From Romanomermis culicivorax (Eukaryota > Nematoda > Enoplea > Mermithida > Mermithidae), in contig CAWUHX010000022.1 of assembly GCA_963922205.1 (NCBI GenBank), forward strand, positions 682,001-746,000: DNA of 64,000 bases. Reading direction: 5' to 3'. Below are positions 24,571 to 63,500 of the stretch, piece after piece. The position numbers were made by a program, and so were the translations under genes. Each line of letters opens with the position of its first letter. Position 1 is the stretch's first letter. The notes below the pieces were generated by a model. It did not search any database. It saw only the letters and a list, made by a program, of their open reading frames with translations, and was not told the origin of the DNA.

Positions 24571-24714
24571 CATACCTGTAAGAGGTCCGACCAGTTGGGG
24601 GAGAGGGGACCGAAAATTTTGGAGTGGTGGTCCCGAAATTTACAAAATTTTAGGGAGGGGTCGAAAGACCCCAGTCGAAAAAATTTCGAAAGTTTTCCCA
24701 AAAAAGGCCAAAAA

Positions 24715-27500: not shown

Positions 27501-27508
27501 ATAGTACC

Positions 27509-31921: not shown

Positions 31922-31923
31922 TA

Positions 31924-36113: not shown

Positions 36114-36146
36114 TGTAATGTAGATGCTAATGCATCAGTGTAAATA
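36114..36146 (+). repeat. 5' LTR remnant of element 1
   Basis: The first 33 bp are identical to the start of the 3' LTR at 42797 (TGTAATGTAGATGCTAATGC and onward). The match ends abruptly in a T-run, marking an internal deletion. Confidence 0.9.
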
Positions 36147-36149
36147 TTT

Positions 36150-37222
36150 TTTTTGTTGAGGATTTTTTGTTGAAGGCATGCAGAACGAAATCAGGGAAGC
36201 AATTAACCCTAAAAGAAATGTCTGATGAAGCAGCTTACATTGAACAGCAAATTCTTAGAAGTGAATTAAAATCCAACAACCTACCGTTCTTACCTCCAAA
36301 ACCTGAACCCATCTTTTCATTAACAAACAACGCTGACCAACAAGGCCTTTTGCATCAGTTAGAACAGCAAGTAAAAGACTTAGAGTTGCAGATCAAACAA
36401 AAATCACAACCCCCACCACAGAGTAACTACAACAGTTTTAGCAACAACAACACTTTTAGTAGCAACAATGGTTACAGAAACAACAGCAGTTTTAGACAAC
36501 CCACATGCTTTCAATGCAGGCAACTCGGTCATGTAGCTTGAAACTGTAATTCAATTGGGACACAAAAATCATGTGAAATTTTTTTTCGTAATAATCATGT
36601 TACATGCGATTGTAAAAGCCGATGTATTCATTGTTCCCAAACAGGCCATAGATCTGACCACTGCGTATCAAAAACTTACTCCAACATTCTGTGCTTTTTG
36701 TGTAAACAGAGACGTTGCACAAGCAGGTATTGCCCCAACCAACAGAGTTGTGATGTCCAAAATTGTATCGAAGATAGGCAACCCCAACCCCTAATGAACA
36801 TTGATGACCCTGCTCTTTACTCCACACTGCCCACTATACATAGCCGCCCCCAGCATACTTCAGGAACTAAAATGCGGGCCTCTCACCGACGTAGTGAAGA
36901 AGAATACATCTTCGATTTGGACCTCCCCTACTGGTGCAGTATGTCACCACCCCCCACACCAGAGACCGACACCACCCCCAAGCCGCTACCTACCATTCCC
37001 ACCACATACAAAATCCCCAGAAAACGTTCATGTGCTTCGCCTACCACCCTTGAACTGCCAACCAGGAAAGGCCGAAACGTTTTTTCTTTACTCCACAGCC
37101 TAACACCTGAACCGTACAAATTCCTCCCCGTAAAACCCTACTCCCTACCCCAAAAAGTATGCAAATCCCTACCCCATCATGCAACCCAACTTCTCAAACT
37201 CTACAGACTATTCATATTGTAA
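36150..37222 (+). pseudogene. gag of element 1 (C-terminal part)
   Basis: Gag forms the particle core. The capsid is lost to the 5' deletion. What remains is a helical segment (SDEAAYIEQQILRSELK, then LEQQVKDLELQIKQK, a likely coiled coil) and an asparagine/serine-rich linker. The nucleocapsid-like cluster follows: CFQCRQLGHVA-stop-NC is CX2CX4HX4C with one TGA, CIHCSQTGHRSDHC is a second CCHC knuckle, and CFLCKQRRCTSRYC is a third Cys-rich motif. A proline-rich tail of about 150 residues ends at 37222. Its last 89 nt overlap the open env frame, which lies in +1. Confidence 0.85.
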
Positions 37223-39007
37223 ACCAACCAACCCCACCACCGAGACCTACACAACACTGAGGAGGTGCCCGCCAAATCGCCCCGATTGCAAAAAACAACA
37301 CCACCCCACCTCCAATAAAAACTATTATTGGTGTCTTTGTTGCCTTGTATTTTGTATAATAATCCCAACATCATGTCATGTACAATTTCAGCTCTGTGGA
37401 ACTTCATTGAGCGGTCATTCAGTCAGCATACAAAAAACTGTATCATGCGTGCCCCCTTCCACAGTAGACAAACCAGTACAGACATTCAGAAAAATCTATA
37501 TTCCCTCCACCAAACTTCACATAACAGATGCATACAAGTGTAGCATTCGCAAAAGAAATATTTGTACCAATACTGGATTTTTTTGCTCAAAAGGCATTGT
37601 TTTCGATCAAACGGAATTGGAAAATCTAACCCCACATGTTTGTAAGACAATCATTATAGATAAAGAGCACAATAGTCAAAAATTGTACAAGACCAAACCA
37701 GGATTTTGGTCCACAAACAACTCCCTAAGCTTCGAATACACATGGTGTTGTACAGACCATTGTACGTCTGTAACTAACGTCATCATAGAAATTAGACAAA
37801 TAGCATCATGGAATGGGAAATCAAGGATAGGTACATTAGGTGACCTGGGGTCATGCAAACCAACATCAGGTCATTGTGTAACAGCCGACGGGGCCATTAT
37901 CTGGAATGAGACAAAATTTGAAAACTTATGCCCTTTCAAATACAAAAAGATGTACCCCATAAAACTAACACAAACTCACATGACAATTGAGAAACTACAT
38001 GGCCCATTCTCTATCAAAAATGTCCTCTTTTCCAACCCCAACTGCCCCAAAATCCAAGACAGTGTCCTAACCAAACAAGGTATTGTCGTACAGTTAGACA
38101 AAAGAATGCCACACTGCAATGCCTTTTTAACCCCACTAGTCAATGAAACCCAGACTACATTATACGATTTTGACGATTTTGAACCCATCAATGCAAAACT
38201 AAATTTCCTAGCAGGCAAAACTCAGGAATTCGAAATTCAAATTTTCAAAAACATCTGGAATGAGTTATGCAGACAGGCACAACGTCATCTTGACTTAGTC
38301 TGGCAAATTTTGCGCCTTGATGCAACTCTTGGGGCACGTGCATTCCTACAAAGGACGGACATAACAGCAGAATTCACAGGTGATGCCCTCACAGTCTGGT
38401 CCTGTAAGCAGGTAAACGCGTCAAAAGTCTTTTACAGACACAAAATCAATGGAACTTGCTACAAACTCCTACCTATCCTTGTGGGGACCGACATTACGTT
38501 CTCAAATCCAGGATGAGGAAATCATTTGACCCCTTCTCCCAAACTGTTGACTGCCACCACATGCATGTTGCCCTATACAAACAAAATAATACATGGCTCA
38601 GCAAAACAGGATTCCCACATGTCACTGATCTGCCCTTAGAAATCTTATGGAATCAAAACTTCTCCCTCTTTTATTTCAACACACCAGCACTTTTTCAAGA
38701 CCAACTTGCAACAATACTGACAAACTTACTCTTTTTAAAGCAATACATCTACAAAACCCACACCCTTGAAAGCATCATTAACAAACTTACTAATTACACC
38801 ACCCAAATGTCTCTCAACTCAGATACAGTATACAATAGGATCTCAGGCAGTGGTCAAGCAATCAGCAACATACTTTCCGATGCCCGTCAAGGCATAAAAC
38901 ATTTCATAACAGGCACTACCCAAAGCCTCACGTATGGATTGAATAACTTACTCAAGGGACCCTTGCAAATCATTATCAACCTGGCCGTCATCACTTTCAT
39001 TGTATAA
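37134..39007 (+). pseudogene. Envelope-like glycoprotein of element 1, between gag and protease
   Basis: The env frame opens at 37134 and has an ATG at 37179. About 46 residues later there is a hydrophobic stretch (WCLCCLVFCIII) that could be a signal or anchor. A cysteine-rich ectodomain with many N-x-S/T sites follows (CCTDHCTSVTNV, GARAFLQRTDITAEFTG, CYKLLPILVG), then a membrane-proximal helix region and a C-terminal hydrophobic segment ending at a TAA (39005). One frameshift lies near 38500. It aligns by eye along its length with the env of element 2. The pattern of a CYxxLPxxxG motif after a long Cys-rich region and a single C-terminal anchor recalls glycoproteins of chuvirus-like negative-strand viruses; that assignment is tentative. 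Decayed. Confidence 0.8.
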
Positions 39008-39660
39008 GTCTTTTACTCCTTCCTTATTTTGTGAAAATATTTCCCTTCCCCAAAGCATCATATTGCCAATGAACATGCATATGAAATACCTTTACACAAC
39101 AGGCGTTTACATGAGACTATCCCTCCCTCAACCAGCCACACCCTCTTAGAATTAGCCAATCGTCGTGAGGCCCAAACTCAACAGAAATACATCCTTGTCT
39201 ACATTGATACTCCAAGGACCCCAGCAATTGAACTTACAAATCAAATCCATCAATCTGGGTCCAATAAATTTCCACCAACCATACTTGAGAAACATACCCC
39301 TCACATTCCAATCACGCTCAAGGGGAAGCTATTCACCAAAGGCATGATTGACACTGGTGCCATGTACTACCTCATTCATTCTCGAATTGCTGAAGCCTTA
39401 CAGCTAGACATGAAACCCCCATTAGTTCAAGCAAAAGCAGCAAACAACCTTCCCATCCACTTCGTAGGAACAACCATTCTTACAGTAACTGCCAAACTAT
39501 CTAAGAAACTATAATGGTACGTGTCCAGAAAGATTGCACAGCAGACGTCCTTCTGGGAAAAAATTTCCTCAGCTGATTCTCAGAATATACCATCCACAAT
39601 CAAAAGTCTCAAGTCAAATTTGGGGATGTCATACTCACCTGCGAAAGTCTAGAATACAGC
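39008..39660 (+). pseudogene. Aspartic protease domain of element 1
   Basis: It continues in the env frame with only stops between them. GMIDTGAMYYLIHS (DTG codons 39350-39358) is the retropepsin active site. After a frameshift comes VLLGKNFL, the second conserved block of the fold (compare LGxxFL). One protease copy is present here, corresponding to the second of the two in element 2. It would process the Gag and Pol polyproteins. Confidence 0.82.
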
Positions 39661-39687
39661 TCCCTGTCGACCACTGGCAGAACCTAT

Positions 39688-40930
39688 TTGGATGAGAAAT
39701 TAGAACTACCACCACAAATTGTTACTGAATTCACTTTCCCCTTACCAAAATCATACCTACACATCAACCAACTCGAATTGACCCCAAAAGCCAGACAGAA
39801 TGCTAAAGTTCATTTCGCTGCTTGCATATCAGAAAACCAAAACAGTCGCATACACATTTCCATCTTAAATACGCAGGACACCCCCAGACCCTTTACCCTG
39901 GCACATGCATCTGCCCAGTTACCAGGTTCATTCCAAAAGAAAACTCCCCCACCAAACTAGCCCCTCCTACACCAAACCAGCCCAACAGTTTTGATACATT
40001 TACATGGTTAAAAAAACCGTCAATTTGGCTTCAAGCAACCCCACTGAAGTGGAGAATAATCAACTCCTATGCTCTCTATCCAAATACCCCACATTATATG
40101 CTAATTTCAAGATGGACATAGGTAGAACCACACTCGTCTCCCATACCGTTGACACCAACAGCTCCCAACCTGTACACAGACATCTTTTTCAGACATCCCC
40201 AAAAGAAAAACAAATAATACAAGCAGAGGTCGAACAACTTGCAGCAGCAGGTGTAATTAGCCAGAGCAATTCCCCATGGTGTACAAACACAGTTTTAGTC
40301 TCCAAAAAAGATGGTGGACATCATCTATGCATTGACTTCCGGTGCCTCAATAAAGTGATCAAAAAAGATACTTACCCCTTGCCTCGCATCGATGAAATCC
40401 TAGACACCCTGCATGGAACGGAATATTTTACATCCCTCGACCAGTCCAATGCCTATTACTCCATTCCTATTGCAGAAGGTGACAGAGAAAAAACCGCCTT
40501 TAACTGCTCAGCTGGGCAATACCAGTTCAATTACCTCCCCTTTGGCCTCACAAATGCCCCTGCCACATTCCAAAGATTAATGGACATTATCCTTTTGGGA
40601 TTGCAATAGAACACCTGTCTCATCTACCTGGATGATGTCTTAGTCTTACCAAATCTCATGCTCAAATGTTAGAACACTTAGACATCATTTTCATTCATTT
40701 TTCAAAAGCTGGACTCAAACTCAATATACAGAAATGTAAATTTTGACAACCCCAGATACAATATTTAGGCAATGTTATCTCTCAGCAGGGTATTTCTCTA
40801 GACCCAAACAAAGTACAATCCATTTTTGACGTACCTACACCCCAAAGCTCAAAAGAAGTCAAGTCATTTCTCGGCTTACCCTCGTATTACCGCAGATTTA
40901 TCCCCAAAGAAAAACTCTGAATTTTCATGG
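39688..40930 (+). pseudogene. Reverse transcriptase of element 1
   Basis: Metaviridae-type RT. Seen are VEQLAAAGVISQSNSPW, VSKKDGGHHLCIDFR, NKVIKKDTYPLPRID, motif A region FTSLDQSNAYYSIPI, FNYLPFGLTNAPATFQRLM, then after one TAG the catalytic YLDD (40625-40636). The thumb region is frameshifted (LGLPSYYRRFIP equivalent at about 40873). The catalytic aspartates of YLDD are intact. Confidence 0.92.
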
Positions 40931-41400
40931 GGCCCTGAACAACAGAATGTCTTCATTGAACTCGAATAGTTGATCATTCATGCACCAGTCCTCCAACACC
41001 CCCATTTTACAAAGCCTTTCATTTTGCAAGCTGATGCATCAAAGCTTGGAATTGGCGCAATTCTAAGCCAACTGGATACTAAAGGTCATGATCGCCACAT
41101 CGCTTTTGGGAGCCGCACATTAAAACCTGCAGAATGCAACTACCCTATAACGGAATTGGAAACCCTTGCTGTAGTTGAGTTCATCAAGCATTTTCGCCTC
41201 TATCTTTTCCAACAACATGTCATTGTCCACACAGACCATACTGCAGTCCAGGCAGTCCTCCAAAAAGAAAACCCCTCCCCTCACATGGCCCATTGGTGAC
41301 TAGCCCTCTCTGGTATTCAACTTGACATTCGGCCTAAGAAAGGTACTGCTAACCGAAATGCAGACGCCATCTCTCATTTCCCATCTGACAGGGCAAAACA
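40931..41400 (+). pseudogene. RNase H domain of element 1
   Basis: Reads PFILQADASKLGIGAILSQ, SRTLKPAECNYPITELETLA, VVEFIKHFRLYLF, VIVHTDHTAVQAVL, then RNADAISHFP. This is the gypsy-type RNase H that removes the RNA strand. ADAS replaces the usual TDAS and a TGA lies after HMAHW. Confidence 0.9.
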
Positions 41401-42765
41401 ATCTTTTGATATTGAACACCTTGAAACCCACCCTGAAATATCAACTATTAACTCCAATCTTGAAGCCGAAGCCACTGAGCGGGAGGAACAACAGAAAATT
41501 TTTGCAGAACTCCAACGCACTGATCCAACCATCAAAACTATCTTAGCTAAAATCACCCTAAAACATCCCCTTACAATGATTAAATTCGCAGTTCACCACA
41601 ATATTCTATTTTGTATAATTGACAAGCAACCCAAACTATACGTCCCAAAATCACAGATACATGATGTCATTTGCATCTCATCACCACAGCAAGTTTACAG
41701 GCCATTTTGCCTCCTGGAAGACCCTCCACCATCTCGGACAAAAATATTTTTGGCCACAAATGAGTCGTGATGTCACATGTTACTGCAAAACTTGTCACCC
41801 CTGCCAGACCCACAAAGCCCTCAGGCACAGAATACATGCTAGTCTTGTCCCTATATAACCCACAGGCCCATTTGACATAGTCGGTGTTGATTGCATGGGG
41901 CCGTTACCCATACCTGAGGAAGGAAACTGATTCATTGTCCTATTTACCGATTATTTCACCAAGTATGTCGAGGCCTTCCCAACCCCCAACATCACAGCAG
42001 CAACAATCGCCGAGTTATTCGTTAATAAAATTGTTTGCCGTCATGGCTCTCCAAAAATCATCCACTGTGATCGTGGATCAGATTTCCTCTCTGATCTTTT
42101 TACCCGAATCACTGACTTGTGCAATACTCACAAAGTTCACACAACTCCGTATCACCCCATTGCCAATGGGGAAGTGGAACCTTGCAACCAGACCCTCACC
42201 GCTGGTATACATATGTATATCAACTCGAAACATACTGATTGGGACACTTATTTACCCTTTGCCGTTTTTTGATCAACATTCATAAAAATGATAGCACTTC
42301 ATACCCCCCCCCCCATTCGAATTTCTCCATGGTAGACAACCCAATTTACCATCCCATGCAGCGTTAAATTTTCTCCCCACCTCCTATATGGTTGATCTTG
42401 ATGACTACGCTCTCCCCATCAAATCCCATTTCACCGGAACTCTCTCAACCATTCAGAAGAATTTACAAAAAGCCCAAACCCAATATACAGTTCAGTACAA
42501 TAAACATGCCCATGATATCCACTATGAATCAGGTGATCTCATTTTATATAAAAATCATTCGTGTAAACAAGGGCTCACTCCTAAATTCTTAACCCACCAA
42601 AATGGGCCCTATACAGTCACAAATTTCTTGTACCCTAATATTACCCTCAGACATCCCCTCAAGAATACCACTTTTAGGGTACATGTATACGAAACGACCC
42701 CATTCTACCACCAAATAGCTCCTACCGAAACTACCCCAACCCCTTCTCACCCTCGAACCCCTTGA
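41400..42765 (+). pseudogene. Integrase of element 1
   Basis: An HHCC zinc domain (GHFASWKTLHHLG, CYCKTCHPCQTHK) is followed by the DDE core: VGVDCMGPLP, IIHCDRGSDFLSDLF and PYHPIANGEVEPCNQTL give D, D and E. The C-terminal GPY-type segment reads GDLILYKN, LTPKFLTHQNGPYTV. Several frameshifts and stops separate these blocks. Confidence 0.92.
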
Positions 42766-42783
42766 ACAAGGACATTCAACTTC

Positions 42784-42796
42784 AGAAGGAGGAAAA
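42784..42796 (+). other. Polypurine tract of element 1
   Basis: AGAAGGAGGAAAA lies immediately before the TG of the 3' LTR, as expected for the plus-strand primer. Confidence 0.8.
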
Positions 42797-43658
42797 TGTA
42801 ATGTAGATGCTAATGCATCAGTGTAAATACATAATGTACACTATGTGATATTCATTAATAACAATAAATTCATTTTAGAATCTATCATCTCAAGGGTGTC
42901 TGGATTTCACATCCAGACATTCCTATAAATTTATGTGAAGTACTCTGTTTTGATCGTCCCACACCCCGGTAGCTATTATTGACCCAATTAAAGACGCTCT
43001 AATTAATTTGCACATCAGCAGCTGGTCCCCTAGAATCCACATGAAAGTACACATTCCACAGCTATATTAATTCTCCATTAAAACCGTAAACACACCTGCA
43101 TGTAGTAAAAAGTAGAAGCCCAGCCAGACACCAGTCTCAAATGGAACAGTAGCCACAGTTCCTACAAAAACATGCATACACATGAGAAATAGATACAGAA
43201 GCATACACAGAAGCACAGAGATGTGGTTAAGTCCACCATAGGCCAAGTAGCAAGCATAAGAGAAGAGTGAAAAGCATACAGTACTAGGAAAGCATTGGAA
43301 GGCATGGCTGAACAATTATACAGGATACAGAAGCAGAAGAAGCAAGAAGTAGCAATTGGTGGAAGAAGATTTCCGAAACGGACCTTCCACGAACCAAGGG
43401 AGTGGTTAAAAAGAAGCAGTATTTAAAGAAAAGCAAGGCGTGATTCCGTCAGATTTTGTGAAAGCATGTTTTTATGCGAGACTTGCTGTGAAACTAAAAG
43501 TGTATTCTTATATCGTCAACATAGAAGCAATCCTCGATTTATCATTCATTATTATTTTGTCGTATTACCGTTGCCATTCCTATCACGGCATCCCCGTGGA
43601 CCATGTAAAGTGCAGCATCAGGATCAAGTAAAAGTATAATTAGAATCTGAGCGTTACA
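42797..43658 (+). repeat. 3' LTR of element 1 (862 bp)
   Basis: Starts TGTAATG and ends GTTACA, with CAGT duplicated outside. AATAAA occurs at 42863-42868. The remainder has no ORF of note. Confidence 0.88.
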
Positions 43659-43770
43659 CAGTCACTTCACACAAAAAATCGCCCTTTGTGTAAACAAAGG
43701 TATTTTTTCAATTTTTTGGGTTAAGGGTTCTAGACCAAGGGGAATCCAACAGATATGGTTACTTTACATT
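43659..43770 (+). repeat. Tandem repeat of about 98 bp, right part
   Basis: Resumes the array cut at 36113 (CAGTCACTTCACACAAA, GTGTAAACAAAGG, GGGAATCCAACAGATATGGTTACTTTACA). Removing the element and one CAGT restores the roughly 98-bp register. Confidence 0.75.
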
Positions 43771-44899
43771 CTGTTTACAGCGTCTTTTACTTTTACCGAA
43801 AGTGAGAATTTGTAGTTTTTTATTGTTTCTTTGATGTGAAGATGACCAAATTTAAAACTTGCTTCTATAAAGGTTTTCATGCATCCTTGAGGCCCAAAAA
43901 GAGGTGGACTAGTTTACTAGAAAATGCCCCTGAAAAAAGTGGTGGACTGGTTAGAAAAGTATTTCTCTACATTTGGGTGAAGTAAAATATTAGCTTGCAT
44001 ATCATTTTCAACCAGAAAAATTTTACTGTGGTTGATACAATGCTATAGGAGGACAAAATGCACGAAGCTGCAGAACAAACTTTTCCACGGACATGAAAAA
44101 ATTTTTTAATGGGAAAGAATAAAAATCCAATATTACAAAAGTGGATTTTTCAAACTTTAACTCAAGTTTTCAAAAATCTAGTCCACTCCTTTTTCTAGCT
44201 TGGCAACTATCCAAGCGAGTTCTTTCTCCTCCTACTACTGCCCCATTGGAGCATTTTCTAATAAACTAGTTACAAAATGTGCATGCTTTGACAGTGCAAC
44301 AAATCTGTTTTTCAGTTTATTACAAAAGAGTTGCAGTATGTTTCTTTACACTGGATGTTAAAACCTGTTTGGTTAACAATCTAAAATAAAATTTATTTGA
44401 AAATCGATCATCAGCATTCAATGATCAAGGTCAACGTCAGCAACTGAATTTATTTTTTGAATAGCGATCAATGATGTCCACACTGAAAATTCTGAGTGAA
44501 ATGACTATTCATACACTTTGGGAGTTAATGGGGAGTCATGACCTCGGCAGACTCTTGCTGACCATCAGATTCTGTTCCCCAGCATTGGCCAAGAAAATTA
44601 TGAAGGAAAATGAAAGAAAAAAACGTCATAAGAAAGAAAGTTATGCTGCAGCATGCAACACTTTTTCTGAACAAAGCATACTTGATTCCAAAAGAGTAAC
44701 ATCAACTTTAAGAAGTGCTGACCCAGCCCATAGTTTCTCTATTTGACTTCAGATAGACGAAATTTCTGCTTGGATGTTAGAAAACCATTCTTTTGGTTAT
44801 CAAGAACTCGTCGAATGATGGAAATATAATTTCTTGTTAATGGAATATAGGTATTGTTTTCAAATCGTATAGCCAGATCAAATGTGCCTTCATCTTTAA
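43771..44899. other. AT-rich stretch, nothing recognised
   Basis: A 91-codon ORF at 44471-44746 (plus) is rich in K and E but has no recognised domain, and I do not call it a gene. CTAGTCCACT / AGTGGACTAG words near 43905-43950 and 44170 are inverted, suggesting another short element. Confidence 0.4.
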
Positions 44900-45140
44900 C
44901 AATTTTTCCTAATTAATAGCAGCAAAAATCAGTACTGTTGTCAAAATGGTTTACATTGAGTTTTTACTGTAAAAATTTTCACTCGAATAATTGTTGAAGG
45001 TTTGGTCAGTATGCTCATAGATTTCCGGTCCTGTATTATATATTGTTTATCAGAAATCTGAGATACTACTGCTTTCTCATTTTCATTATTTAGAAGCATT
45101 TCAAGAAAAAACAGGCTATACATCTACTTTGATTATCGAG
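44900..45140 (+). pseudogene. Relic related to the hAT element at 27954
   Basis: Non-coding similarity to 28745-28960 is visible over about 200 bp: TTGTCAAAATNGTTTACAT, TTTCACTC-AA-AATTGTT-AAGGTT-GGTCAGTATGCTCA, TTTCATTATTTAGA-GCATTTCAAGAAAAAAC. The last part contains an acceptor-like TTATTTAG, so it may be an intron/exon junction of the old transposase gene. No ends were found. Confidence 0.6.
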
Positions 45141-46985: not shown

Positions 46986-46989
46986 TCAA

Positions 46990-51392: not shown

Positions 51393-52079
51393 ATTATCGA
51401 AACTGGAACTAGAAAAAACTAGAAAACACAGCTATTTACCAAAATTTTATACAGTAATCATGAAAAATATTTTATAAATAGCAAAAACTATTAATTCTAC
51501 AGTAGAGTTTTTATTAATTTTTATGACCCTGTCACAGTAATTTTCTTTCTTACTATGGGAAAGCTTTAAAGACCTCTATAACTCATGAACATGTGTCCGT
51601 ATCATTTCTTTAGCTTATTTTACCAGCATATAACCAGTTAAAATGAGTTGAAACACCTGTTCTACAGTACAACTCTAGTATTTTTGTTTTGATTCTTAAT
51701 ACTATAAAAGAACTGTAATAGCTGTCTATAATTCTGTTGCACCATCTTTTCTTTTTATGGAGAAAAGCTTAAAAGACCATTATAACTCATGTGCACGTTG
51801 CTATATCATTTCTCTAGTTTTGACCTTGAAGATTACTATAACCCACAAACACAATTATTTTCTCTGGGTTCTATATGTATATGACAGAAAAACAGTTACT
51901 GTAGGATATATGACCAGAATATTTATTATGCTTATAACCCTGCCTCCTACGTAGACGTCAAAATAACATACTACTGCAGGATATATGGTGAGAATATTTA
52001 TGATGCTTATAATCCACGTCTTACTCTCTAAATTTTTAAACAATTTATAGATTTCTCATTTTTGCTGGTAGAAAGAATT
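51393..52079. other. AT-rich stretch, nothing recognised
   Basis: A local duplication of TACTGNAGGATATATGNNGAGAATATTTATNATGCTTATAA is seen at about 51897 and 51973. No gene was recognised. Confidence 0.45.
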
Positions 52080-52445: not shown

Positions 52446-52570
52446 TCTTTCGAAAAAAGGCATCCTCGCCCTTGTGTTTTTAAGTGCGGCATGTCCGTGG
52501 AGGTATATTGTTCAGGTAGATGTGATGGCAGGCGGACGATGGTCCAGTAGTTTTTCAGTGCGTTTTGGCT

Positions 52571-52690
52571 CGTGGAGTTATGTCAATGGTGCATGGAGTT
52601 GCTGAGGTCAATTGAAAATGCGTGGAGTTGCTGACATCAATTGATCCGTTTGGTGATGCATGAAGTTGCGGATTGTCGATTGATTTGTGG
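52571..52690. repeat. Tandem GTGGAGTTGCTGACATCAATTGA units
   Basis: Four imperfect units begin near 52571, 52591, 52621 and 52658. The core GAGTTGCTGACATCAA resembles the TTGCTGACGTCAA units at 63704-63975, on the same strand. This may be a trace of the two LTRs of element 2, but I could not align full LTRs. Confidence 0.4.
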
Positions 52691-53029
52691 AATCTGTAAC
52701 GAGACTAAAAGAAAAAATTTTAGGGGCGAGATGTAGGCTATCGCACAGATGTGCCTGTGATATGAGGTGATACCCTAGTTTAGATGCATTGATCACTGCT
52801 CATTCTCTTCTTTACACTGCTGTTCCAGTATGGAGCAGGAGCAGGTATTCCCTGAGGGGCACAGCGGTCCTTCGAAAAAGGAAGACCTCGTCCGTAAGTC
52901 GACTAAAGAAGAGAAGAACTACTTGATTACGAGTTGGAGACCTCTGCATCAAGATGTGGGTCAACGAGATCTTGTGTAAAATCTCAGCTTGTTGATGGAA
53001 TCAACAAAGGTGCTGTCTCGATTATCTGT

Positions 53030-54370
53030 GAAGTGGAAGGTATCTTCTCTGCTTCAACAGGCTGATCAGGTGACACGTAGCGTCTAAGCTGATTGACATG
53101 CACAGTATCTTCTTAATCAGCCTCAAGCTGAATGGTGACATTGGGATATGTCACATTCATAACAAAGTAGGGCCCATTGTAGATGGGCAGCAATTTAGGC
53201 GTAATACCATGTTTGCCGGCGGTGCGCAGTTTGAGCACTTGATCACCAACTTTGTATGAGACATCTCCTGCCATGCGATCATAGGACCAAGCCTAAGCGG
53301 CCTGTGATCTCTCAATTCGGCTCTGGATCAAGGTCAAGGCATTTGTAAAATGCTGTTTGACCTCCATATCATATGTGGAAACATCAATGATATGGGCGGG
53401 AGGGTTGAATGAGAGGGCCACATCAACAGGGAGCATGGGCATACGCTCATACATGAGCTCAGAGGGGGAATATCCTGTGGACTCATTCATGCTAATGTTG
53501 ACGGTGAACACAGAATACAGCAGGTGTTCATCCCAATCAGTATGACCTTGGTGGACATACATATGTAGCCATGTAGCTAGCGTCTGATTAGCTCTTTCCA
53601 CTTCTCTGTTTGTCATTGGGTGATAAGCGGTGGAGTGGATTTTCTCAGTTGAACAAATGGCAGTGATTTCAGTCATCAGTTTGGACATGAAATCAGTACC
53701 ACGATCAGACTGAGGAATCTGCGGTGCCCCATGTCTGCAGTCAATTTGTGTAACAAAAAGGTGTGCTATGGTTTGCGCAGTAATGTCTGGAGCAGCGAGA
53801 GCTTCAACCCATTTGGTAAAGTAGTCGATAAAGACTAAAATAAAATGGTTGCCACTTTCACTAGTGGTCATTGGTCCCATACAGTCGACACCTACTCGAT
53901 GAAATGGCCCCGTAATGGTAATTGGTTTCAGAGCTGCTCGGGCCTTTTGTCGAGTAGGTTTATTCCCTTGGCAAAGATCACACCACTGACAAAAGTATTT
54001 TACGTCGGCACTGAGGGAAGGCCGGTGGTACCTGCGGGCTATAAGCCTTGCGGTACGTTTTGCACCAAAGTGTCCAGCAAGAATGTCATTATGGTGAGCC
54101 TCAATAATGGTAGTAACCATTGATCAAGGAATGACATTCTTGTTGGACTCGCCTGTCCACTTCTGAAGGATGTTATCCAACAGGTGGTAGCCATTAACGT
54201 CATTCTGGTCACTGTAGGGTTTTAGTGACCTAAGAATGGAGACTAGTTCCGGATCCTCAAATTGAGCTGCGAGAAGGTCATGGTGCTGCACATCCTGTGA
54301 TATCTTAGCATAAGACTCTGACCTCGCCAGGCGCTGCGCACCATCGGTGGTCATTTGGAATGATCTCGCC
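53030..54370 (-). pseudogene. Integrase of element 2
   Basis: HHCC zinc domain (AHHNDILAGHFGAKRTARLI, CQWCDLCQGNK), then the DDE core: VGVDCMGPMT, QSDRGTDFMSKL and TNREVERANQTL supply D, D and E. Typical flanking blocks FIDYFTKWVEA and HSTAYHPM are present. A single TGA (about 54121) precedes the main open frame 54120-53293. After a TAG the C-terminal GPY-type domain follows (GDQVLKLRTAGKHGITPKLL, YNGPYFVMNV, VHVNQLRRY), ending near 53030. Confidence 0.94.
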
Positions 54371-54440
54371 AGCCGCTGTGCACCATTAGAGATCATTTGA
54401 GATGATCTCACCAGGGGCTGAGCTCCATCAGAGATCATCA
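54298..54440 (-). repeat. Three 14-residue repeats in the RNase H-integrase linker
   Basis: The protein reads MISDGAQPLVRSSQ, MISNGAQRLARSFQ and MTTDGAQRLARSES in tandem (42-nt period). It is an expansion of a linker outside the catalytic folds. Confidence 0.85.
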
Positions 54441-54479
54441 TAGTCTTTCCCTCGGGTCTGTATAGGGGAGTCTCGTCGA

Positions 54480-54900
54480 TACTCTCCCCGGCAAGGTAAT
54501 TAGGATCAGGCAGGTGTGATAATGCGTCAGCATTACCATTAGACTGACCTTTTCGCGGCTGAATCGTCAGTTTGAATTCAGCGAGCGCGAGGCCCCACTG
54601 AGCTATCTGGGCTGAAGGGTTAGGTTTCTCCAACACAGCCTTAACAGCAGTATGATCAGCCTGAATGACCACCTCATGTTGAAAGAGGTAAGGCCGAAAG
54701 TGCTTGACAAAATGGACAACAGCAAGAGTCTCTAACTCTGTAATAGTATAGTTCTTCTCAGCTGCGGTTAACCCTCTACTGGCGTATGCGACAGGATGGT
54801 CTTATCCATCATTGTCCAACTGGCTCAGAACTGCTCCTATCCCCGAAATACTTGCATCGGTTTGAAGGATGAAGGATTTCATAAAGTCCGGATGGCGCAG
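54480..54900 (-). pseudogene. RNase H domain of element 2
   Basis: FILQTDASISGIGAVLSQL, then past one stop the ELETLAV and VKHFRPYLFQ blocks, and VVIQADHTAVKAVLEKPN. NGNADALSHLPDPN closes the domain. This is gypsy-type RNase H with the first catalytic Asp in TDAS. Confidence 0.9.
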
Positions 54901-55780
54901 AATAGGAGGGTTCGTCAACAGCCTTCGGAGTTCGTTGAATGCCCCTTGCTGAGGTTTTGACCACAAAAAGGTAACTTCCTTCCGTAAGAGCTTCGTCAGC
55001 GGCTCGCTGAGCTGGGCCCAACCAGGGATGAAACGCCTGTAGTATGACACAAGACCTAGAAAAGATTTGATGTCTTTGGCGTTTTCTGGATTGGGTAGAT
55101 ACTGGACGGCAGCCAATTTGACTTTATCCAGTTCTAGGCCATTCTGTGAGATACGGTAGCCTAGATATTCTACCTCAGAGTGTGAAAACTTGCACTTGCT
55201 CAGTCTGAGCTTCATTCCACCCTGACGGAGATGCATAAACACATCCGTCAGTCGCTCAAGCATCTGTATGTGAGAGTTCCTGAACACCAAGATGTCATAG
55301 AGATAGGTCAATGCTGTACGCCACTGCAATCCCGTGAGAAGCTGGTCCGTGAGGCGTTGGAACGTCCCAGGGGCCTTGCAGAGACCAAAAGGCAGATAGT
55401 TGAACTCATAGAGGCCAGTAGGGGTATTAAACGCCGTTTTCTCTTTGTCTGCCTTGGCAATAGGTATAGACCAGTAGGTGTTAGCCTGATCAAGGGTAGT
55501 AAAGTATTTCATACCCTTGAGTGTGTTGAGGATGTCATCAATCCGTGGGAGAGGATAGACATCTTTTTTCATGACCTTGTTAAGACCACGAAGGTCAACA
55601 CACATCCGGTGTGACCCATTTTTTTTGCGCACCTGGATGGTATTCGTAGCCTAGGGGGAAGCACTAGGCTGGATAATACCTTTTTCCTGGAGCGCTCTGA
55701 CTTCTTGTATAATGAGCTCCTTTTCCTTGGGCGCCGTGCGGTGCTGATCTCATGGTGCACGAGGTCAGTGGAACCTGTGT
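54802..55780 (-). pseudogene. Reverse transcriptase of element 2
   Basis: LVHHEISTARRPRKR precedes the domain. KKNGSHRMCVDLRGLNKV, DVYPLPRIDDIL, FTTLDQANTYWSIPI, FNYLPFGLCKAPGTFQRL and KCKFSHSEVEYLGYRIS are clear Metaviridae RT blocks. The catalytic box reads YLYD (55305-55294), so the first of the two essential aspartates is a tyrosine and this copy would be inactive. The thumb block DIKSFLGLVSYYRRFIP is intact. A frameshift lies near 55700. Confidence 0.94.
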
Positions 55781-56289
55781 CCTTCTCATCAATAGCATAG
55801 AGGTCAGTGAATGCGACCAGTAGGTTAAGTAACGCTGTCTTGTCCTGTGCGGAAATATTGGGGGATATCACAGCATTCGCTTCCATCCACTTCTGGTCAA
55901 GAATGGTATCAAACTTGACTGCGGATCCCCGTGAGGCAACAGTGTGCATCTGCACATGACTGATGGTCATGTGCGGGTAGAGAACCACTGAGTGTGTACT
56001 AGGGTTAACTACCTGTAAGGGTATGCGACCATTAGTCACAGTACTCACAGTACCAGTAAAATATATGCTGCTTTGTTGTCCCAGGAGGGGCTTAGGGAAG
56101 AAAGCTACCTTGGGCACATTCACATATAATAAGGGTACAGGTGCAGTAAATTGCATCAGCAAGCCAGGTTCAAGGACAATCAACTCTTGCAAGGGCAGTG
56201 CACCATGAGCAGAGGGAGGGTTGTCAATGAGGCCCTCACACAGAACCTGAAGCTCCTTGAACTGAAGAAAAGATTTCTCCCAGTTCAGG

Positions 56290-56690
56290 CTGACACAATT
56301 GAACCGTCGGAGGAAGTTATTCCCCAAGACTAGTCCAGCTGAGCAATTCTCTTGAATTTGGACCTGAATCCGTTCAGAGAAATCAGTCACTGTTACCGTG
56401 ACATAGGCAGTGCCTAGCAGTAGAATCGGAGACCCATTGTTTGCTATGGGGCGAGCCCTAGTCTCTGTGAGTACCAAGTCGGGTAACTGGACCACCAACT
56501 TGTGATCCAGGAGCCAGAAAACTGCTCCTGTATCAATCAGAGCTTTGGCTTCCATCCAATTGTTCAGGAGAACTCTGATATGAGGGGTCCTCATTTCAGT
56601 AGGGTAGAAGGCTGACACTACATGACCTGGATCAGGTGTAGGATCACCAATACTCGACTCTGGCGCATCCGTTCGCTTTGGTATTGGCAA
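56290..56690 (-). pseudogene. Second aspartic protease domain of element 2
   Basis: RVLLNNWMEAKALIDTGAVF (DTG at 56534-56526) and GLVLGNNFLRRFN (about 56330) are the two hallmark blocks of retropepsins. An SPILLLGTAYVTVTV strand lies between them. It matches the single protease of element 1 in position, directly before the RT. A proline/serine-rich linker (56785-57160) separates it from the first protease. Confidence 0.85.
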
Positions 56691-57229
56691 ATTGGTGCAT
56701 CGGAGTAACCCTACCAGAGCATAACCAACCGATGATTTCGGATTAGTCCGAGGAGTGGGATGAACCTGAACAGTAAGTATGTGATCAGATTGCTCTCCTG
56801 AGCTCTGAGTAGCGCCCTAGTGATTCGACTTCTGTATCAGAGAGTGGTGACACCTCTAGCACAGGGGATGCAGGTGCATCTGAATCACTAGGCTTGGGGA
56901 ACTGGCCCTTTTCTAGTGTAACCGGAGAATTTCCACACGGGGGTCTAGGGCAACTTGACCCAGACCTGGCCATTAAATGACGACTGGTCCATCTGGAAGA
57001 TGTCCGACTACCTCTAGTCGACCCATGTGATGAGGTGACAGAGGAAGCCCGTGAGGGTGGCTAAGAAATGGAGGAAGTCCTTGATCTTGATCCAGACCCT
57101 GACCTGTGGGAGGCCCTTGATAGTGAACATGTGTTCTCCCACCAGGGTTCGACCTGATCAATCTCAGCCGCTGTCAAGAGAAGCGGCAGTTCTACTGCAT
57201 TCAACCGACAGACATGTTGTTGGTAATCA

Positions 57230-57600
57230 AATGTGATATTCTGGAATTGTTCTAGAAAGTCCAATCCAAGAATCAGATTGACCGGTGCCCAGAAAGGAGA
57301 GGTAGCCTTACACACATGGAGATTTATATTTCACTCTTGTGTGTGGCTGACGGGTTCCAGGCAACATGATCTCATATGGTCCCGATAGGAGAGTATGGAC
57401 GTCTTTCGCATTGATAGTCATCAATGGGTTAAAGTCCTGATGTTGCTGGAAGGCCATCGCGGCCTTCAGACTTTCTTTAATCAAGGCTTTGTGAAGGCGT
57501 TGACTAATGATGGTCCGTGGACAACCAGTGTCAAGGAAAGCTGGAGTTTCCTTGGCGTTAACCAGGAGGACAAAACACGGAGTGATTCTGTCTAACTGAG
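57230..57600 (-). pseudogene. First aspartic protease domain of element 2, fused to env
   Basis: PCFVLLVNAKETPAFLDTGC (DTG at 57532-57524) followed by PRTIISQRL is a retropepsin active site. After a one-base frameshift near 57310 comes VNLILGLDFLEQF, the second block of the fold. The first half is in one open frame with the env anchor and tail (58318-57308). Element 1 has no room for this domain, so it is either a gain in element 2 or a loss in element 1. Confidence 0.8.
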
Positions 57601-57689
57601 TCGGCACATCGTTCTGCACATAGTGAAAACCGACCCAACATTGAACTTTCCGGAGGAGGTTCAATGGAGAGTATTGGCTAACAAACCGA

Positions 57690-59605
57690 ACCTGTCTTTT
57701 TCGCAGGTGGTAGCTGAGATAATAGGAGAACCCAACGTAGAGGAGATATCCTGTACTGGCCAGCACTGCCAGGGTGATGAGGGTGTTAAAGATCAACTGC
57801 ACCGGGCCACTCAGAAGAAACTGTAAGCCCTGTATGAGATTGTGCTGTTGACCAGTAATCATGTGGTTTGCTGCCAGACCAACACCCTCCAGAGAGGTTT
57901 TGATGTCAGTCCCTACCCTTGCAACTGCCTGATAGAGAGAATCTGGTTGTAGGGATAGACCAGTGGTAAAGTTTACCAACCAGTTTAAGACTGCTTCAAT
58001 TTGCTCAGTCTTGTAAATGTATTGTTTAAAGAAAGCAAAACTCCAAGGGGTCAACGCCAACTGATCGTGAAAGAGCGCAGGAGCTTCAAAGTGAGTGATG
58101 TTAAAGCACTCTTCCCAGAAAAGTTCAAGCTGAATGTGGCTCACATACACCGTGCCAGACACAGTGAACCAGCCCGAGCGATTTGGGAAAATCCCCGTAA
58201 AGTGATGGTCGCACGGAACTTTTGGACTGAATTTAATGAGATCTGGGCCCATAGGGGTGGCAAAGTAAATGGTACTGCCAACCTGTATGGGTAGATACTT
58301 GTAACAGGTGTCCCCCACCCAGTATGAATGGTAGACATAAGTGGCATTGACCTTTTGACACGGCTATATTGTCAGTGCTTCACCTGTGAATTCAGCTGTC
58401 AGGTCATTCCTTTGCAGAAAGGCCCGGGCTCCTAGTGTAGGGTCAAAACGAAGCAACTGCCAAGGCATACCAAGGTAGCGTTGAGTGTGAGAACAAAGCT
58501 CAAGCCATGTGAACCGAAAATTGTTAATTTCCGACTCTTTGATCTGCTGAGCCAGGTAGTTCAATTTGGCATTGATGGGGTCAGGACCTGGGTCCTTTGC
58601 CAATCCGAACAACCTTTGGGTCATATTAAATCTTCCGTAGATGTGTAGAAGAAGACCCTGATCTGTTCCTACTGTGTTTAACCTGAGGTCGGCACACAAC
58701 CGAAAGATGCAAGAGTTTCCTGGGATCTTCAGGGCAACTTGCAAATCATCGATGATGATATGGTTCCCTGACACAGACGCAGTGTAATTGCCCTGAGGAT
58801 GATAATGACACTGTGCTGTAAAGTTTGTTGCAGGCCAAACGATTACCCCGTCCAGAGTAATACATTGACCAGCAGTGGGACTGCATCCACCTACATCACC
58901 TAAGGTACTTAGAGCTGTAGTGCCATCCCACAAAGCGACCTGTCCCTCCTCAATGAAGAGGTTAGTCACCGTCTTGCAGATGTCACTGCAGCACCATGAG
59001 TACATCACTTCCAGCGTTTGGTTAGTGCTATAAAAGCCAGGGCGTATTTCTACAAGCTTTTGTAAACCAAACACCTTCGTGCGATGTGCTAGTGTACAAG
59101 CCGCAGGCGCTAGATGCTGAGTGGTAATGATGTCTGCAGTAATGCCCCTAGATCCAAAAAAACCAATGTTGGTGCACACCTTATGGTTTCGCAAAGTGCA
59201 CTTTCACGCTACAGTAGTGATTGGATCAGAACTAGGAACATACACTGTAACATTCATGCGCCGGGGACTCCATGAAGATTTTGGTCACTTGCATTCAACT
59301 TTTTGAGGTAGCTCAAGTGGATGACCGCTTCTTGAAAGACCACAAAATTGGTACTGAGGAGCGTGTATTACAGAGCTTATTCCTAAGAACAGTAGTGTTA
59401 TGAAGGCCCAATTTATTATGTACAAGCTATTTACAAACGGTGCTCGTAAATATACACCAAGATGTACAGTGTCCGCCAGTTGGGCGGGTTCATTCTTCGC
59501 CATCGTTGTCAGACGATATGGGTTCCTCACTGGGGAAGTCGATGACCAAGCCTTGGCACGGGTGAACTTCGCGAAGAACACCAATCTTTGGGGACCGCGG
59601 GGCGG
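57690..59605 (-). pseudogene. Envelope-like glycoprotein of element 2, between gag and protease
   Basis: The frame opens at 59605, with the first ATG at 59503. A hydrophobic segment WAFITLLFLGISSVI follows and could be a signal or anchor. The ectodomain is Cys-rich with many N-glycosylation sequons (YSWCCSDICKTVTN, GGCSPTAGQCITLDG, GARAFLQRNDLTAEFTG, CYKYLPIQVG). Near the C-terminus is a membrane span (about 57802-57725, LIFNTLITLAVLASTGYLL) and a basic tail HLRKRQ. Two TGA and one TAG interrupt a single frame; there is no frameshift within env. The frame runs straight on into the first protease. In an infectious element this would mediate cell entry. The relationship to chuvirus-like glycoproteins is a suggestion only. 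Confidence 0.82.
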
Positions 59606-61950
59606 TTACCATCAGGAATAGTGACGCCTCAATGATGCTGACGTCGTCGTTGACAGTGCGCAACGTCTCTCCAAAGGCATTGGCGATCGTGGGCGGTGGT
59701 TTTGCGGCAGCCGCTGGTTGCTGCTGGGCAATCGCCTCCAGTGTTTGGGCTCCTGTCCTTGTCATTGACAGTAACTGCTGTGGGCTGCCCGTTGCAGCTC
59801 ACCTGTTCCACAGAGCGGCGGATGGCTTCCGCTGCCGGCGACGACAGTTCACCCTCAAACAGGATCTTGTCCATTGGGGTGGCGTGAATAGTTCCGTCAG
59901 CAATAAACTTGAGCACTTGTCGAGCTACTCCGGGCCCTAATATCCGCAATGCCGCTGGCGCCAGTAGCACCACGTCAGCGGCTGTAAGCGCCTCAACCTC
60001 GAACCGCTCATTGAGTAGCACCCATGGGAGGTGGGGATACTTTTTGGCCAAATCCGTTGACCAAATGGTCTGCATCGCGTTGGTGAGGGATGAGGAATCT
60101 GTAAATGAGAGATCATTAAAGCCGGTGACTTATAAGGATATCTGATGTTCAGACCTGAAATGTCAGAAAAAGAAGGTAGTGTACCTAGCAGATTCATCGA
60201 TTCCAATTGACCGAGGACCTCCAATGCAGAGTCCATAGGAATTCTGGGCAGCGGTCCTTGGGCGACAAAACGGGCCGGAGGAGCCGGTGTACCTTCCATC
60301 CGTCGATATGACGCAACTACGCTGATGTTGCCAGCCATTTTCGGCATCTTTGAAGGGTTTATGTTGACCGGCTTCGCGTATTTTAGCGGTGGCAGCAGCA
60401 AGGCTGACAATGGAGTCAATGCCGAAACCACTGCGGCAGCTGAAAACCCAATACTGATTACACAAACAGGATAACACAATTGTGAATGATCCGCCAGGTG
60501 TTCAGCCGGAACTTCATCATCCAGATCAAACAGATCTGGGTGAGGAAGACCGTCAGTAGCCCCTACGGCATTATTTTGCCCCGGGGTTGGCCGATATTGG
60601 TTCCCTGTCCGGTGGGGAGGTGGATTAGCATATCTCCCAAAATTCCCACTTGCCCCCTGAGGAGAGTAACCAGATTTACCAAAGTTAGTCTCACCAGGCA
60701 TTGTCAGGTTCTGATGTGGGCGGGCCCTGGCCCCGTGCACTCGTATTTGTCAGCAATGCAGACAGGGTCTGTCACATCAGTCAGTCGGGTGCGCCCTCCT
60801 TCGACAAAAATAGCAACAGCCGGGGCCGGTGGTGTTGCTAGGGCTGGTGCTGTCGGGATGTTGGGCCTGGCAACTAGTGTTGTTGTGGGTGCAGCGTCCT
60901 TGGTACGAGCACATCTGTAAATGTGCCCCTGATGGGCGATTGCCAGCGTTTTTGGACATGCGCTGATGGCATCCTTGACGGCATCAGATTTCCCGGAGGG
61001 GGCACCATTTGCTGAGCAGTTAGTCTCCCAATGTGAGCTGTAAGCCGGGCCATCTCCTATTGTAGATGTCAAATCTTGTCCGACGGCGTTGCCGACGGAC
61101 CTTGAGCGGTGCCCCTTTGATTTGACATTGACCTGACGTTGTCGGGGGTCCTCTGTTCCGAAGAGAAAACAGCATTAGATGGGGCAGTATACCTAACCTC
61201 ATCCCCAAAAATCTGTGATTCTGCGTAGCAAGCTGCTTTGAGAGTCTCTTCAAGAGTTGTGAACTCCCTGAACTTAATACTATCTCGAAGGACTGGTTTC
61301 AACTCTCGCAGAAAGATAGGTTTAATAATCGAATCCCTAACGTCAGTCGCGAGATCCGGATAAGCCACCCTGGACAGTCTCTTAAATGCTCAAGATAGAC
61401 TATCACGGACTCAGTCGGCTTCTGCAGGTGATCTTGGATCAACTGCTGATGCAGATCTGAGTCACGCCCTACTGGAAAGTCTTTCCTTAGAAAAGTGGTG
61501 AACTCTTCGTAGGGGGTAGGCTGTGGAGTACCACTGCTAAAGTCCCGGTAGGATGCAAGAGCAGGACCTGTTAGGCAAGACTCCAGAAACCGGATTTTAT
61601 ATGCATGATCCGTTTCTGTTACCCCTTGAAGTGTAGAGAAACGGGTCAAGTGAGATATAAAATCCATTATGACTCACCAAAAGTGCCCGAAAAGGCAGGA
61701 GGGGCCATGAAGCTGGACACAGGAGGGTGCCTTCTGCCATTCATAGCCTCCAGCTTTTGGTTGAGCGGTCCAAGGGCATTCTCAAATGCAGCTTGGACCT
61801 TATCCTCAATCTCTGAAGGTAGATCAACCTCTGACTTCATAGTTGAGAGTTCGTCTTCCTGTAAGGTGGCTAAGACTGATAATCATGCCTGTGAAGCTAT
61901 TCGATCAAACTGAATAGAGAGGGGCTCACTGGTCTGATTAAAACTAGAAC
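59490..61950 (-). pseudogene. gag of element 2
   Basis: N-terminal region from about 61860 (EIEDKVQAAFENALGPLNQK, PPAFSGTFGE), then a retrotransposon-Gag capsid (FISHLTRFSTLQG, FLESCLTGPALASYRD, YEEFTTFLRKDFP, YLEHLRDC, and after a frameshift VRDSIIKPIFLRELKP). A Cys-rich nucleocapsid follows (CSYQGRCTHNNTSC near 60911; CYFCRRRAHPTD-stop-C, a CX2CX4HX4C knuckle). The 60740-59490 part is a long extra region (GNFGRYANPPPH, HPDLFDLDDEVP, KYPHLPWVLLNERFEVEALT) without recognised family, ending SSDNDGEE at 59490. It overlaps the open env frame by 116 nt; env is in +1. Confidence 0.85.
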
Positions 61951-61959
61951 TGAGATGGC

Positions 61960-63500
61960 AGGAACATCTAGGTGTCTCTATTTTGTGAAAATGAGGTAAG
62001 TATTACTCTTGTGGTCTCATGACAAAGAGGCGTGGGAATTACTAGATTGTTTACGTGACGGCGTTTTTGAGGCTTTAACACTTGTTCTTTACAATAACTA
62101 GCGACCACTCAATGATGGGGCTAGAAAAGAACAAGGTTTTAGCCCTCAGAACAGCCAGAGAGAGAGAGAGAAATAGGTTGACTCAGAAGGGAATTTATCT
62201 GGTCACCTATGTGTAAAGTGTGTAAAGAGAGGGAAAATTATACGTCCACAAAATTTGAGATAAAGAAATGGGGCTAGACCTGGTTATTTTAAACCAAAAA
62301 GTGAATAAATTTAAATGAAATGGTGGTTTCCCAACCGAAAAGAAGGACAATGTAAGGACTCTAGTACCGATAAACCCACCCAAAAGGGAATTTTATTTGG
62401 AGGTTAAGTCCGTTGTTCTAGTTTACAAAACCTTGGATATGGGAGAGCTCGTAAGCGACAAAGTCCTACTCACCAGGAGTAGCATTTGAACTAGCTTAAG
62501 AATTAATAAGTAAAATGGGGACAACTTAAAGTAAACTTAGTGGGTGTAAATAGATAGGGACAAAATTAGTTTACATACTAGACTACGCAAAGGGGATGCG
62601 CAATTACGCAATCCACCTCACTCACTAGGAGCAATTGCAATCTCTGAAAAGTGTGATGACTAGACAGGAGGTTCCCAAGGGGACGACATTCGCATGTATT
62701 CTACAACTGTGCCCAAAATGGGAATGTGCGTTTTGAACAGAACGGGAACTCTCCAGGAGCATTATATACAGCTGGTGGCCTGGATTCCAGTCACTGAGAT
62801 GAAGTGTGGATCGCTAGGTCACCAGTTGGAGGCAAGAGCACCAGGTACCAAGGTGCAATTCTGACACACTCAGTCAGTAAATGGGTGGCATGGGGGTCCT
62901 TGGCCCAGCTGTGCCTAATGGAGGTGGGGATATGCAGGCTTCCTTCTATGATTTGAGGCTAGGCTCAAAGCATCTCGAGATCAGGGGTACAGTCTGTCTC
63001 GATTAAATGAGTGTAAAGTGAGGAGCTAAGGCGGACTTAGTTGTAATGTGTTTAGGCAGACTCGAACACCTTCGCTAAGGCGGACTAGCGGCATATTATG
63101 CTATATGGACAACCAATGGAGGCGGACTCAGGATTAACAGCGACTCTAGTGCAGACATTGTTAGGCCAGCTAATGAAGGCGTTTGAGTGTAAAAATGATT
63201 ACAGAGGGGCCTTTTACACTTTAGGCAGTACGGACTGCAAATGCCTAATGGTTGCGTAAGTTGAACCACCAACCCAGCTGAGGCGGAGTGTAAACCCGTT
63301 CAAACCTACAGTTAAAGCTTTGAAGGTAGTCACATGCTGATTAATCGGTGCCGCTACCCTGGCAGACATTCTGATCAGTATCACTGACTGAGTGCATCTC
63401 AGGTTGAGTTAGCATGTCAACTGATGTTTCCCAGGCACCAGTGATATGCAGACACAACCCTTGGATAAGAGCCATAGGTGAGAAGGTAATATTACAGCAA
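61960..63500 (-). other. 5' leader of element 2, no gene
   Basis: Lies upstream of gag. An (AG)n run is at 62158-62173. From 63010 to 63310 AAGGCGGACT and variants recur about five times. I did not identify a primer binding site or an LTR end. Confidence 0.4.

What the first reader, a model, noticed from the sequence alone, without database searches (positions are those of the whole stretch)
36114..62000. Two LTR retroelements with env between gag and pol
Both the plus-strand element (36114-43658) and the minus-strand element (about 52.6-62 kb) read gag, env, protease, RT, RNase H, integrase. The copies are diverged, oppositely oriented and flanked by different DNA, so a single rearrangement cannot explain both. 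Known retroviruses, errantiviruses and env-bearing BEL/Pao elements carry env after pol. I know of no described lineage with gag-env-pol order.
Basis: partly seen in the sequence, partly recalled or inferred. Interest (0 to 1): 0.92.

Follow-up and report, generated by a model that had tools for sequence, protein, structure and literature searches.

The report
Worm retroelements with mid-placed envelope gene
Two broken virus-like elements in what is probably a nematode (mermithid) genome carry a virus envelope gene between their capsid and enzyme genes rather than at the end; the order is rare but has been reported before, in giant flatworm elements.

Summary
E1 (36114-43658, +) is one LTR insertion with 4-bp target duplications; joining its flanks restores the tandem repeat it landed in. 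Inside, in order: gag zinc knuckles, envelope, protease, RT, RNase H, integrase, then the 3' LTR 31 bases later. E2 (-, about 61.8-53.1 kb) is collinear; its LTRs were not found. The envelope matches Pfam Monjiviricetes_fusion (above cutoff in E1, below in E2). First and second codon positions of env are conserved between the elements while third positions are near random, as in pol, so env was maintained in this place for a long time. Related proteins occur in Romanomermis culicivorax. The claim that no such lineage is described is wrong: Burro elements of planarians have env in frame between gag and protease (PMC6431247). What differs here is the phylum, the ordinary size and the gB/Monjiviricetes-type match. 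A possible extra: GT and AG lie exactly where an R. culicivorax protein model skips env, so splicing might remove it; untested. Both copies are broken; the host-genome and structure tools gave no answer.

The parts
36110..36113 (.). E1 left target-site duplication CAGT
   Evidence: Identical 4 bases at 43659-43662; joined flanks restore the tandem unit
36114..36146 (+). E1 5' LTR remnant (first 33 nt)
   Evidence: 33 of 33 identical to 42797-42829
36200..37222 (+). E1 gag, C-terminal/nucleocapsid part; one in-frame stop inside the first zinc knuckle
   Evidence: CCHC motifs at 36506 and 36623; zf-CCHC 13.9 bits, below cutoff 20.8. The left edge is approximate
37134..39007 (+). E1 env: ORF 37134-38516 and, in another frame, 38408-39007; hydrophobic stretches near 37332 (N-terminal) and 38948 (C-terminal)
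   Evidence: PF24664 Monjiviricetes_fusion 7e-8, above cutoff; Glycoprotein_B 20.6 bits, below cutoff; hydropathy
39035..39960 (+). E1 aspartic protease region (two ORFs)
   Evidence: Asp_protease_2 5e-4, below cutoff; tblastx to E2 PR2; blastp to E2 PR2
39995..40905 (+). E1 reverse transcriptase
   Evidence: RVT_1 8.4e-20; best solved chain Ty3 RT; 72 of 109 identical to E2 RT
40907..41383 (+). E1 RNase H
   Evidence: RT_RNaseH 7.2e-33; tblastx to E2
41676..42765 (+). E1 integrase and C-terminal part, several frames
   Evidence: rve 1.6e-7, 31.9 bits against a cutoff of 32.6; tblastx to E2
42784..42796 (+). E1 polypurine tract AGAAGGAGGAAAA
   Evidence: Read from the sequence
42797..43658 (+). 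E1 3' LTR, TG...CA
43659..43662 (.). E1 right target-site duplication CAGT
59490..61840 (-). E2 gag, broken over several frames; likely start codon at 61840; CCHC at 60815
   Evidence: Ty3_capsid 17.8 bits and Retrotrans_gag 18.1 bits, both below cutoff; CCHC
57600..59605 (-). E2 env, one frame interrupted by stops; hydrophobic stretches near 59422 and 57796
   Evidence: PF24664 15.2 and 19.3 bits, below cutoff; tblastx to E1 env; tblastn of P0001, P0002, P0003 and P0005
57064..57598 (-). E2 extra protease-like stretch (AFLDTG.. then ILGLDFL.. in another frame), the first part in frame with env
   Evidence: gag-asp_proteas 16.6 bits, E 0.013, below cutoff, for 57311-57598; no match at E up to 5 for 57064-57330
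56091..56816 (-). E2 main aspartic protease (ALIDTGA..)
   Evidence: gag-asp_proteas 5e-4, below cutoff; tblastx to E1 protease
55024..55740 (-). E2 reverse transcriptase
   Evidence: RVT_1 2.1e-30; best solved chain Ty3 RT, 3.2e-57
54127..54984 (-). E2 RNase H
   Evidence: RT_RNaseH 4.8e-22
53128..54123 (-). E2 integrase
   Evidence: Integrase_H2C2 2.2e-15, above cutoff; rve 5.2e-7, 30.3 bits, below cutoff 32.6
57596..59467 (-). Candidate env-sized intron: GT at 59467, AG ending at 57596, 1872 nt (a multiple of 3)
   Evidence: R. culicivorax protein P0004 passes from the residue before 59467 to the residue after 57596. Splicing not shown

Best explanation
The two copies are decayed members of one old Ty3/gypsy-type LTR retroelement lineage in a mermithid-like nematode. 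An ancestor took up a Monjiviricetes/gB-type fusion glycoprotein gene between the end of gag and the protease. Shown: the order gag-env-PR-RT-RH-IN in both copies, E1 being a single LTR insertion, and past selection on env in place. Inferred: Env was a membrane glycoprotein (N-terminal hydrophobic segment, ectodomain, C-terminal hydrophobic segment) that let the particles enter cells, as in errantiviruses and Burro. Also inferred: Env was made from the same reading frame as the protease that follows, with gag and pol left on the cytosolic side of the membrane and the parts separated by proteases.
For: E1 bounded by TSD, LTR ends and a restored empty site; env, gag knuckles and pol inside it; 31 bases between the IN frame and the 3' LTR; E1 x E2 collinear. 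Codon positions 1/2/3 identical in three env stretches.54/.59/.34.65/.75/.32.51/.64/.26, like pol (for example RT .70/.78/.36, IN .61/.75/.31); third bases agree at 26 of 103 shared four- or six-fold residues in env and 48 of 201 in PR and pol. RT of both closest to Ty3 among solved chains. Env relatives P0001 and P0005 are annotated R. culicivorax, and P0001-P0003 match PF24664 above cutoff. E2 env frame runs on into a protease-like stretch.
Against: Only two copies, both broken. E2 has no LTR pair. E2 env and gag family matches are below curated cutoffs. E1 has no capsid part. No intact copy, transcript, particle or RT tree was available. Two 9-base matches lie near the two env edges of E1 (37248/39093 and 37311/39260) and none in E2; they were not tested against chance.
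Confidence: 0.8

Rival explanations
1. Env is expressed by alternative splicing around it. The unspliced RNA gives Gag and Env, and removing an env-sized intron joins gag to the protease so that Gag-Pol is made.
For: R. culicivorax protein P0004 joins the gag linker to the protease stretch exactly across env; in E2 the skipped part starts with GT and ends with AG, is 1872 nt (a multiple of 3), and both sides lie in one frame.
Against: P0004 is a database protein of unknown evidence, probably a gene prediction. An env-less copy or a predictor's artefact would look similar. The E2 skipped part has 3 in-frame stops, and E2 gag is in a different frame from env. Not testable in E1. No RNA data.
Confidence: 0.2
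2. Both copies are chance products: an independent viral glycoprotein gene inserted separately into two gag-pol elements.
For: Glycoproteins of related viruses are often found in arthropod genomes near LTR fragments (PMC10084718, passages).
Against: Same position, collinear on both sides, and the two env genes share a pattern of constraint like pol. No 9-base direct repeats at the E2 env edges.
Confidence: 0.04
3. The middle ORF is a membrane protein of the element that is not an entry protein.
For: E2 alone matches the glycoprotein family only below cutoff; no fold could be predicted.
Against: E1 and three relatives exceed the curated cutoff; signal-like and anchor-like hydrophobic segments and N-glycosylation motifs are present.
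Confidence: 0.08

Closest known systems
Burro (GYPSM1) giant gypsy-like elements of planarians (PMC6431247, section 7 read whole)
   Same: Env between gag zinc knuckles and protease; env reported to match fusion glycoproteins of mononegaviruses; gypsy-like pol
   Different: Over 30 kb with a polyprotein of 4,873 aa or more, and extra BIR, ankyrin, BCL2-like and dUTPase-like motifs; Env reported as like gypsy Env. Here E1 spans 7.5 kb, none of those extra domains was found in the ORFs scanned, the env match is Monjiviricetes/gB type, and the host is probably a nematode
Errantiviruses (gypsy, ZAM and others)
   Same: Ty3/gypsy pol with a captured fusion protein
   Different: Env is a third ORF of F type (PMC12992720 passages); its place after pol is recalled. 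Here env precedes pol
Anakin BEL/Pao elements with chuvirus glycoprotein (PMC7642597, passages)
   Same: Captured chuvirus/gB-like glycoprotein in an LTR element
   Different: BEL/Pao pol. The passages seen do not state the env position in Anakin; for Roo, Tas and Cer-7 they place env downstream of the polyprotein
Atlas virus and other nematode belpaoviruses (PMC9094657, passages)
   Same: Nematode LTR element with Env from a negative-strand RNA virus, made within one polyprotein
   Different: Gag-Pol-Env order, class II Env, BEL/Pao pol
Lokiretroviruses (PMC9040795, passages)
   Same: Env similar to Mononegavirales fusion glycoproteins
   Different: Dual RNase H, vertebrate hosts (host recalled), closer to retroviruses

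Membership tests
Ty3/gypsy (Metaviridae) | Domain order PR-RT-RH-IN | tested here: met
Ty3/gypsy (Metaviridae) | RT closest to Ty3-type RT | tested here: inconclusive
   Ty3 is the best solved chain for both, but no clade tree was made and no BEL RT was compared
Ty3/gypsy (Metaviridae) | LTRs TG..CA with 4-6 bp TSD | tested here: met
   E1: TG..CA, 4-bp CAGT. E2: no LTR pair found
Burro-like gag-env-pol elements | Env between gag and protease | tested here: met
Burro-like gag-env-pol elements | Gag-Env-Pol in one open frame | tested here: inconclusive
   E2 env runs in frame into a protease-like stretch, but gag is in another frame and both copies are broken
Burro-like gag-env-pol elements | Giant size with extra domains (BIR, ankyrin, MATH, dUTPase) | tested here: not met
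   E1 spans 7.5 kb; no such family at E up to 1 in the ORF pieces scanned; stretches without long ORFs were not scanned
Errantivirus | Env as third ORF after pol | tested here: not met
   E1: 31 bases between IN frame and 3' LTR
Errantivirus | F-type (baculovirus-like) Env | tested here: not met
   Best family is PF24664, then Glycoprotein_B; no F-type family listed
BEL/Pao with env | BEL/Pao-type pol families | tested here: not met
   Pol pieces match RVT_1, RT_RNaseH, RT_RNaseH_2, Integrase_H2C2, rve and gag-asp_proteas; no BEL-type family (names recalled) is in the lists
Class III fusion glycoprotein | gB/VSV-G type fold | not testable with these tools
   Structure prediction was busy and then switched off; sequence match only

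The most novel reading that the evidence does not exclude
A nematode retrovirus lineage in which the envelope gene sits inside the gag-pol coding unit as a removable intron: unspliced RNA makes Env, and splicing env out fuses Gag to protease and Pol. This would reverse the usual retroviral rule that splicing makes Env and leaving the RNA unspliced makes Gag-Pol.
Probability: 0.15. Interest if true: 0.8.

Novelty: new variant of a known kind. Interest (0 to 1): 0.5.

Why it matters
Nearly all env-bearing LTR elements put env last, where a spliced RNA can make it without disturbing Gag and Pol. A maintained env between gag and pol in a second animal phylum, in an ordinary-sized element, would show that the planarian Burro case is not a one-off and that capture of a fusion protein does not depend on the 3' slot. 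It would also add a gypsy-type element to the hosts of Monjiviricetes/gB-type glycoproteins. A 2023 survey of arthropod-integrated glycoproteins saw no clear capture by Gypsy elements (PMC10084718, passages).

Tried and rejected
Host-genome search for more copies: the same request 10 times, never answered. Structure of env: 5 busy answers and then switched off. Six scans of viral contigs with env, RT and IN pieces and P0003: 0 of 6 gave a confirmed relative. One scan of prokaryote genome contigs with P0002: none. E2 LTR pair: not above shuffles; E1 LTR against E2 flanks: below the shuffle maximum for both flanks. No further copy in the window: tblastx and blastn of E1 and E2 (with flanks) against 1-36000 and 43701-52000 gave, apart from self overlap, flank-repeat matches only; the tblastx tables were cut at 25 rows, so weak matches below could be missed. 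Rfam at gathering cutoffs: 0 matches. A solved-structure search with E1 env gave only an irrelevant E 0.42 match.

Literature: 10 searches. 'gag-env-pol' with 'retrotransposon' gave 0 papers, and six phrasings gave 0. The Burro precedent surfaced through 'between gag and pol' and was read. A bioRxiv paper on envelope-carrying elements across metazoans (seen only as a reference) is not held, so a further precedent there cannot be excluded. Terms and coordinates were faulty and were corrected.

Rejected: a single rearrangement; a recent env insertion; env after integrase.
Full report
What is there. E1 is a single LTR insertion. Its LTR begins TGTAATG at 36114; the first 33 nt of the 5' LTR remain and are identical to the start of the 3' LTR (42797-43658, ending GTTACA). 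CAGT flanks both ends, a purine tract precedes the 3' LTR, and joining the flanks gives the local roughly 97-bp tandem unit running through the junction. A deletion removed the rest of the 5' LTR and most of gag. Inside, reading 5' to 3', are the gag nucleocapsid with CCHC motifs, env, protease, RT, RNase H and integrase. The last integrase frame stops at 42765, 31 bases before the LTR, so env cannot have been after integrase in this copy.

E2, on the other strand, has the same order over about 61.8 to 53.1 kb and is collinear with E1 by tblastx. It is GC-richer (about 0.48 against 0.42), broken by stops and frameshifts, and its LTRs could not be found. All 3 CCHC motifs in six frames of the window lie in the two gag regions upstream of env, though 2 of the 3 contain a stop.

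The middle gene. E1 env passes the curated cutoff of Pfam PF24664, Monjiviricetes_fusion (31.3 against 27 bits), with a below-cutoff match to herpesvirus glycoprotein B. E2 env matches the same family below cutoff. Protein searches with E1 env and an env alignment found 4 distinct relatives: two R. culicivorax proteins (P0001, P0005), one from a bacterial bin (P0002) and one unnamed metagenome protein (P0003). The E2 env-protease ORF found one more R. culicivorax protein, P0004, through its protease-like part. P0001, P0002 and P0003 pass the PF24664 cutoff; P0005 was not scanned. Both copies have an N-terminal and a C-terminal hydrophobic stretch. That this is a class III fusion fold is inference; no structure could be predicted.

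Was env functional in this place? Comparing matched stretches codon by codon, env positions 1, 2 and 3 agree at .54/.59/.34.65/.75/.32 and .51/.64/.26. The PR and pol stretches run from .43 to .70.67 to .79 and .28 to .36. At residues shared by both and coded by four or six codons, third bases agree at 26 of 103 in env and 48 of 201 in PR and pol, near the random level. So silent sites are saturated while the protein is kept: env was under selection in the ancestors of both copies. It shares the position and the divergence of pol, which argues against recent or independent insertion. Two 9-base repeats near the E1 env edges and none in E2 do not suggest a target duplication, but were not tested against chance.

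Relatives and host. The RT pieces are 66% identical to each other (72 of 109), and their best solved relative is Ty3. P0004 is 80% identical to E2 over 64 residues, so the window probably comes from R. culicivorax or a related mermithid nematode (taxonomy). This is not proved, because the host genome could not be reached.

How it may work. Most likely (inferred) Env was produced together with the following protease frame: in E2 the env frame runs on into a protease-like stretch with LDTG. A chain Gag (cytosol), hydrophobic segment, ectodomain (lumen), hydrophobic segment, protease-Pol (cytosol) is topologically consistent. An alternative is splicing. P0004 passes from the gag linker to the protease stretch exactly across env; in E2 that skipped part begins GT (59467) and ends AG (57596), is 1872 nt long and keeps frame. 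P0004 may be only a gene prediction or an env-less copy, so I give this 0.15 to 0.2. E2 also seems to hold two protease-like domains; the first is weak by Pfam (E 0.013, below cutoff) and its second half, in another frame, matched nothing.

Comparison with the known. It is described: the Burro elements of planarians have env between the gag knuckles and protease in one polyprotein, with matches to mononegavirus glycoproteins, and the review calls it the first case (PMC6431247, section 7 read whole). The present elements work like Burro in order but lack its giant size, and none of its extra domains was found in the ORFs scanned. Errantiviruses, Atlas and other belpaoviruses have env after pol (PMC12992720 and PMC9094657, passages; the errantivirus position is recalled). 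For Tas the two papers seen disagree on the env source: phlebovirus in PMC7642597, herpesvirus gB in PMC9094657.

Verdict. Observation confirmed; the claim of a wholly new gene order not supported. It is a new variant of a known kind, of medium interest, with a bolder splice reading that is testable with public data.

Noticed in passing
57064-57598 (-) and 55569-56816 (-): E2 appears to carry two aspartic-protease-like stretches in tandem, the first in the env frame; E1 shows only the second.
   Followed up: partly
47930-48334 (-) and 47020-47328 (-): Fragments of a B-type DNA polymerase: PF03175 2.6e-8 for the first; the second looks like it by eye (an FDMDS motif, recalled) but Pfam gave no such match. 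Possibly a Maverick/Polinton remnant.
   Followed up: partly
27485-28033 (+): Reverse transcriptase ORF (RVT_1 7.9e-18) that looks non-LTR; a weak endonuclease-like match lies at 24562-25167.
   Followed up: partly
30310-31923: Inverted repeat with arms of 185 and 136 nt (92% and 87% complementary) around about 1 kb.
   Followed up: no
8886-9109, 20883-21058, 33304-33485, 35030-35375: A dispersed G-rich repeat family with several copies in the window.
   Followed up: no
50990-51300: Long simple repeat that reads as poly-Leu, poly-Phe, poly-Lys or poly-Glu in different frames.
   Followed up: no
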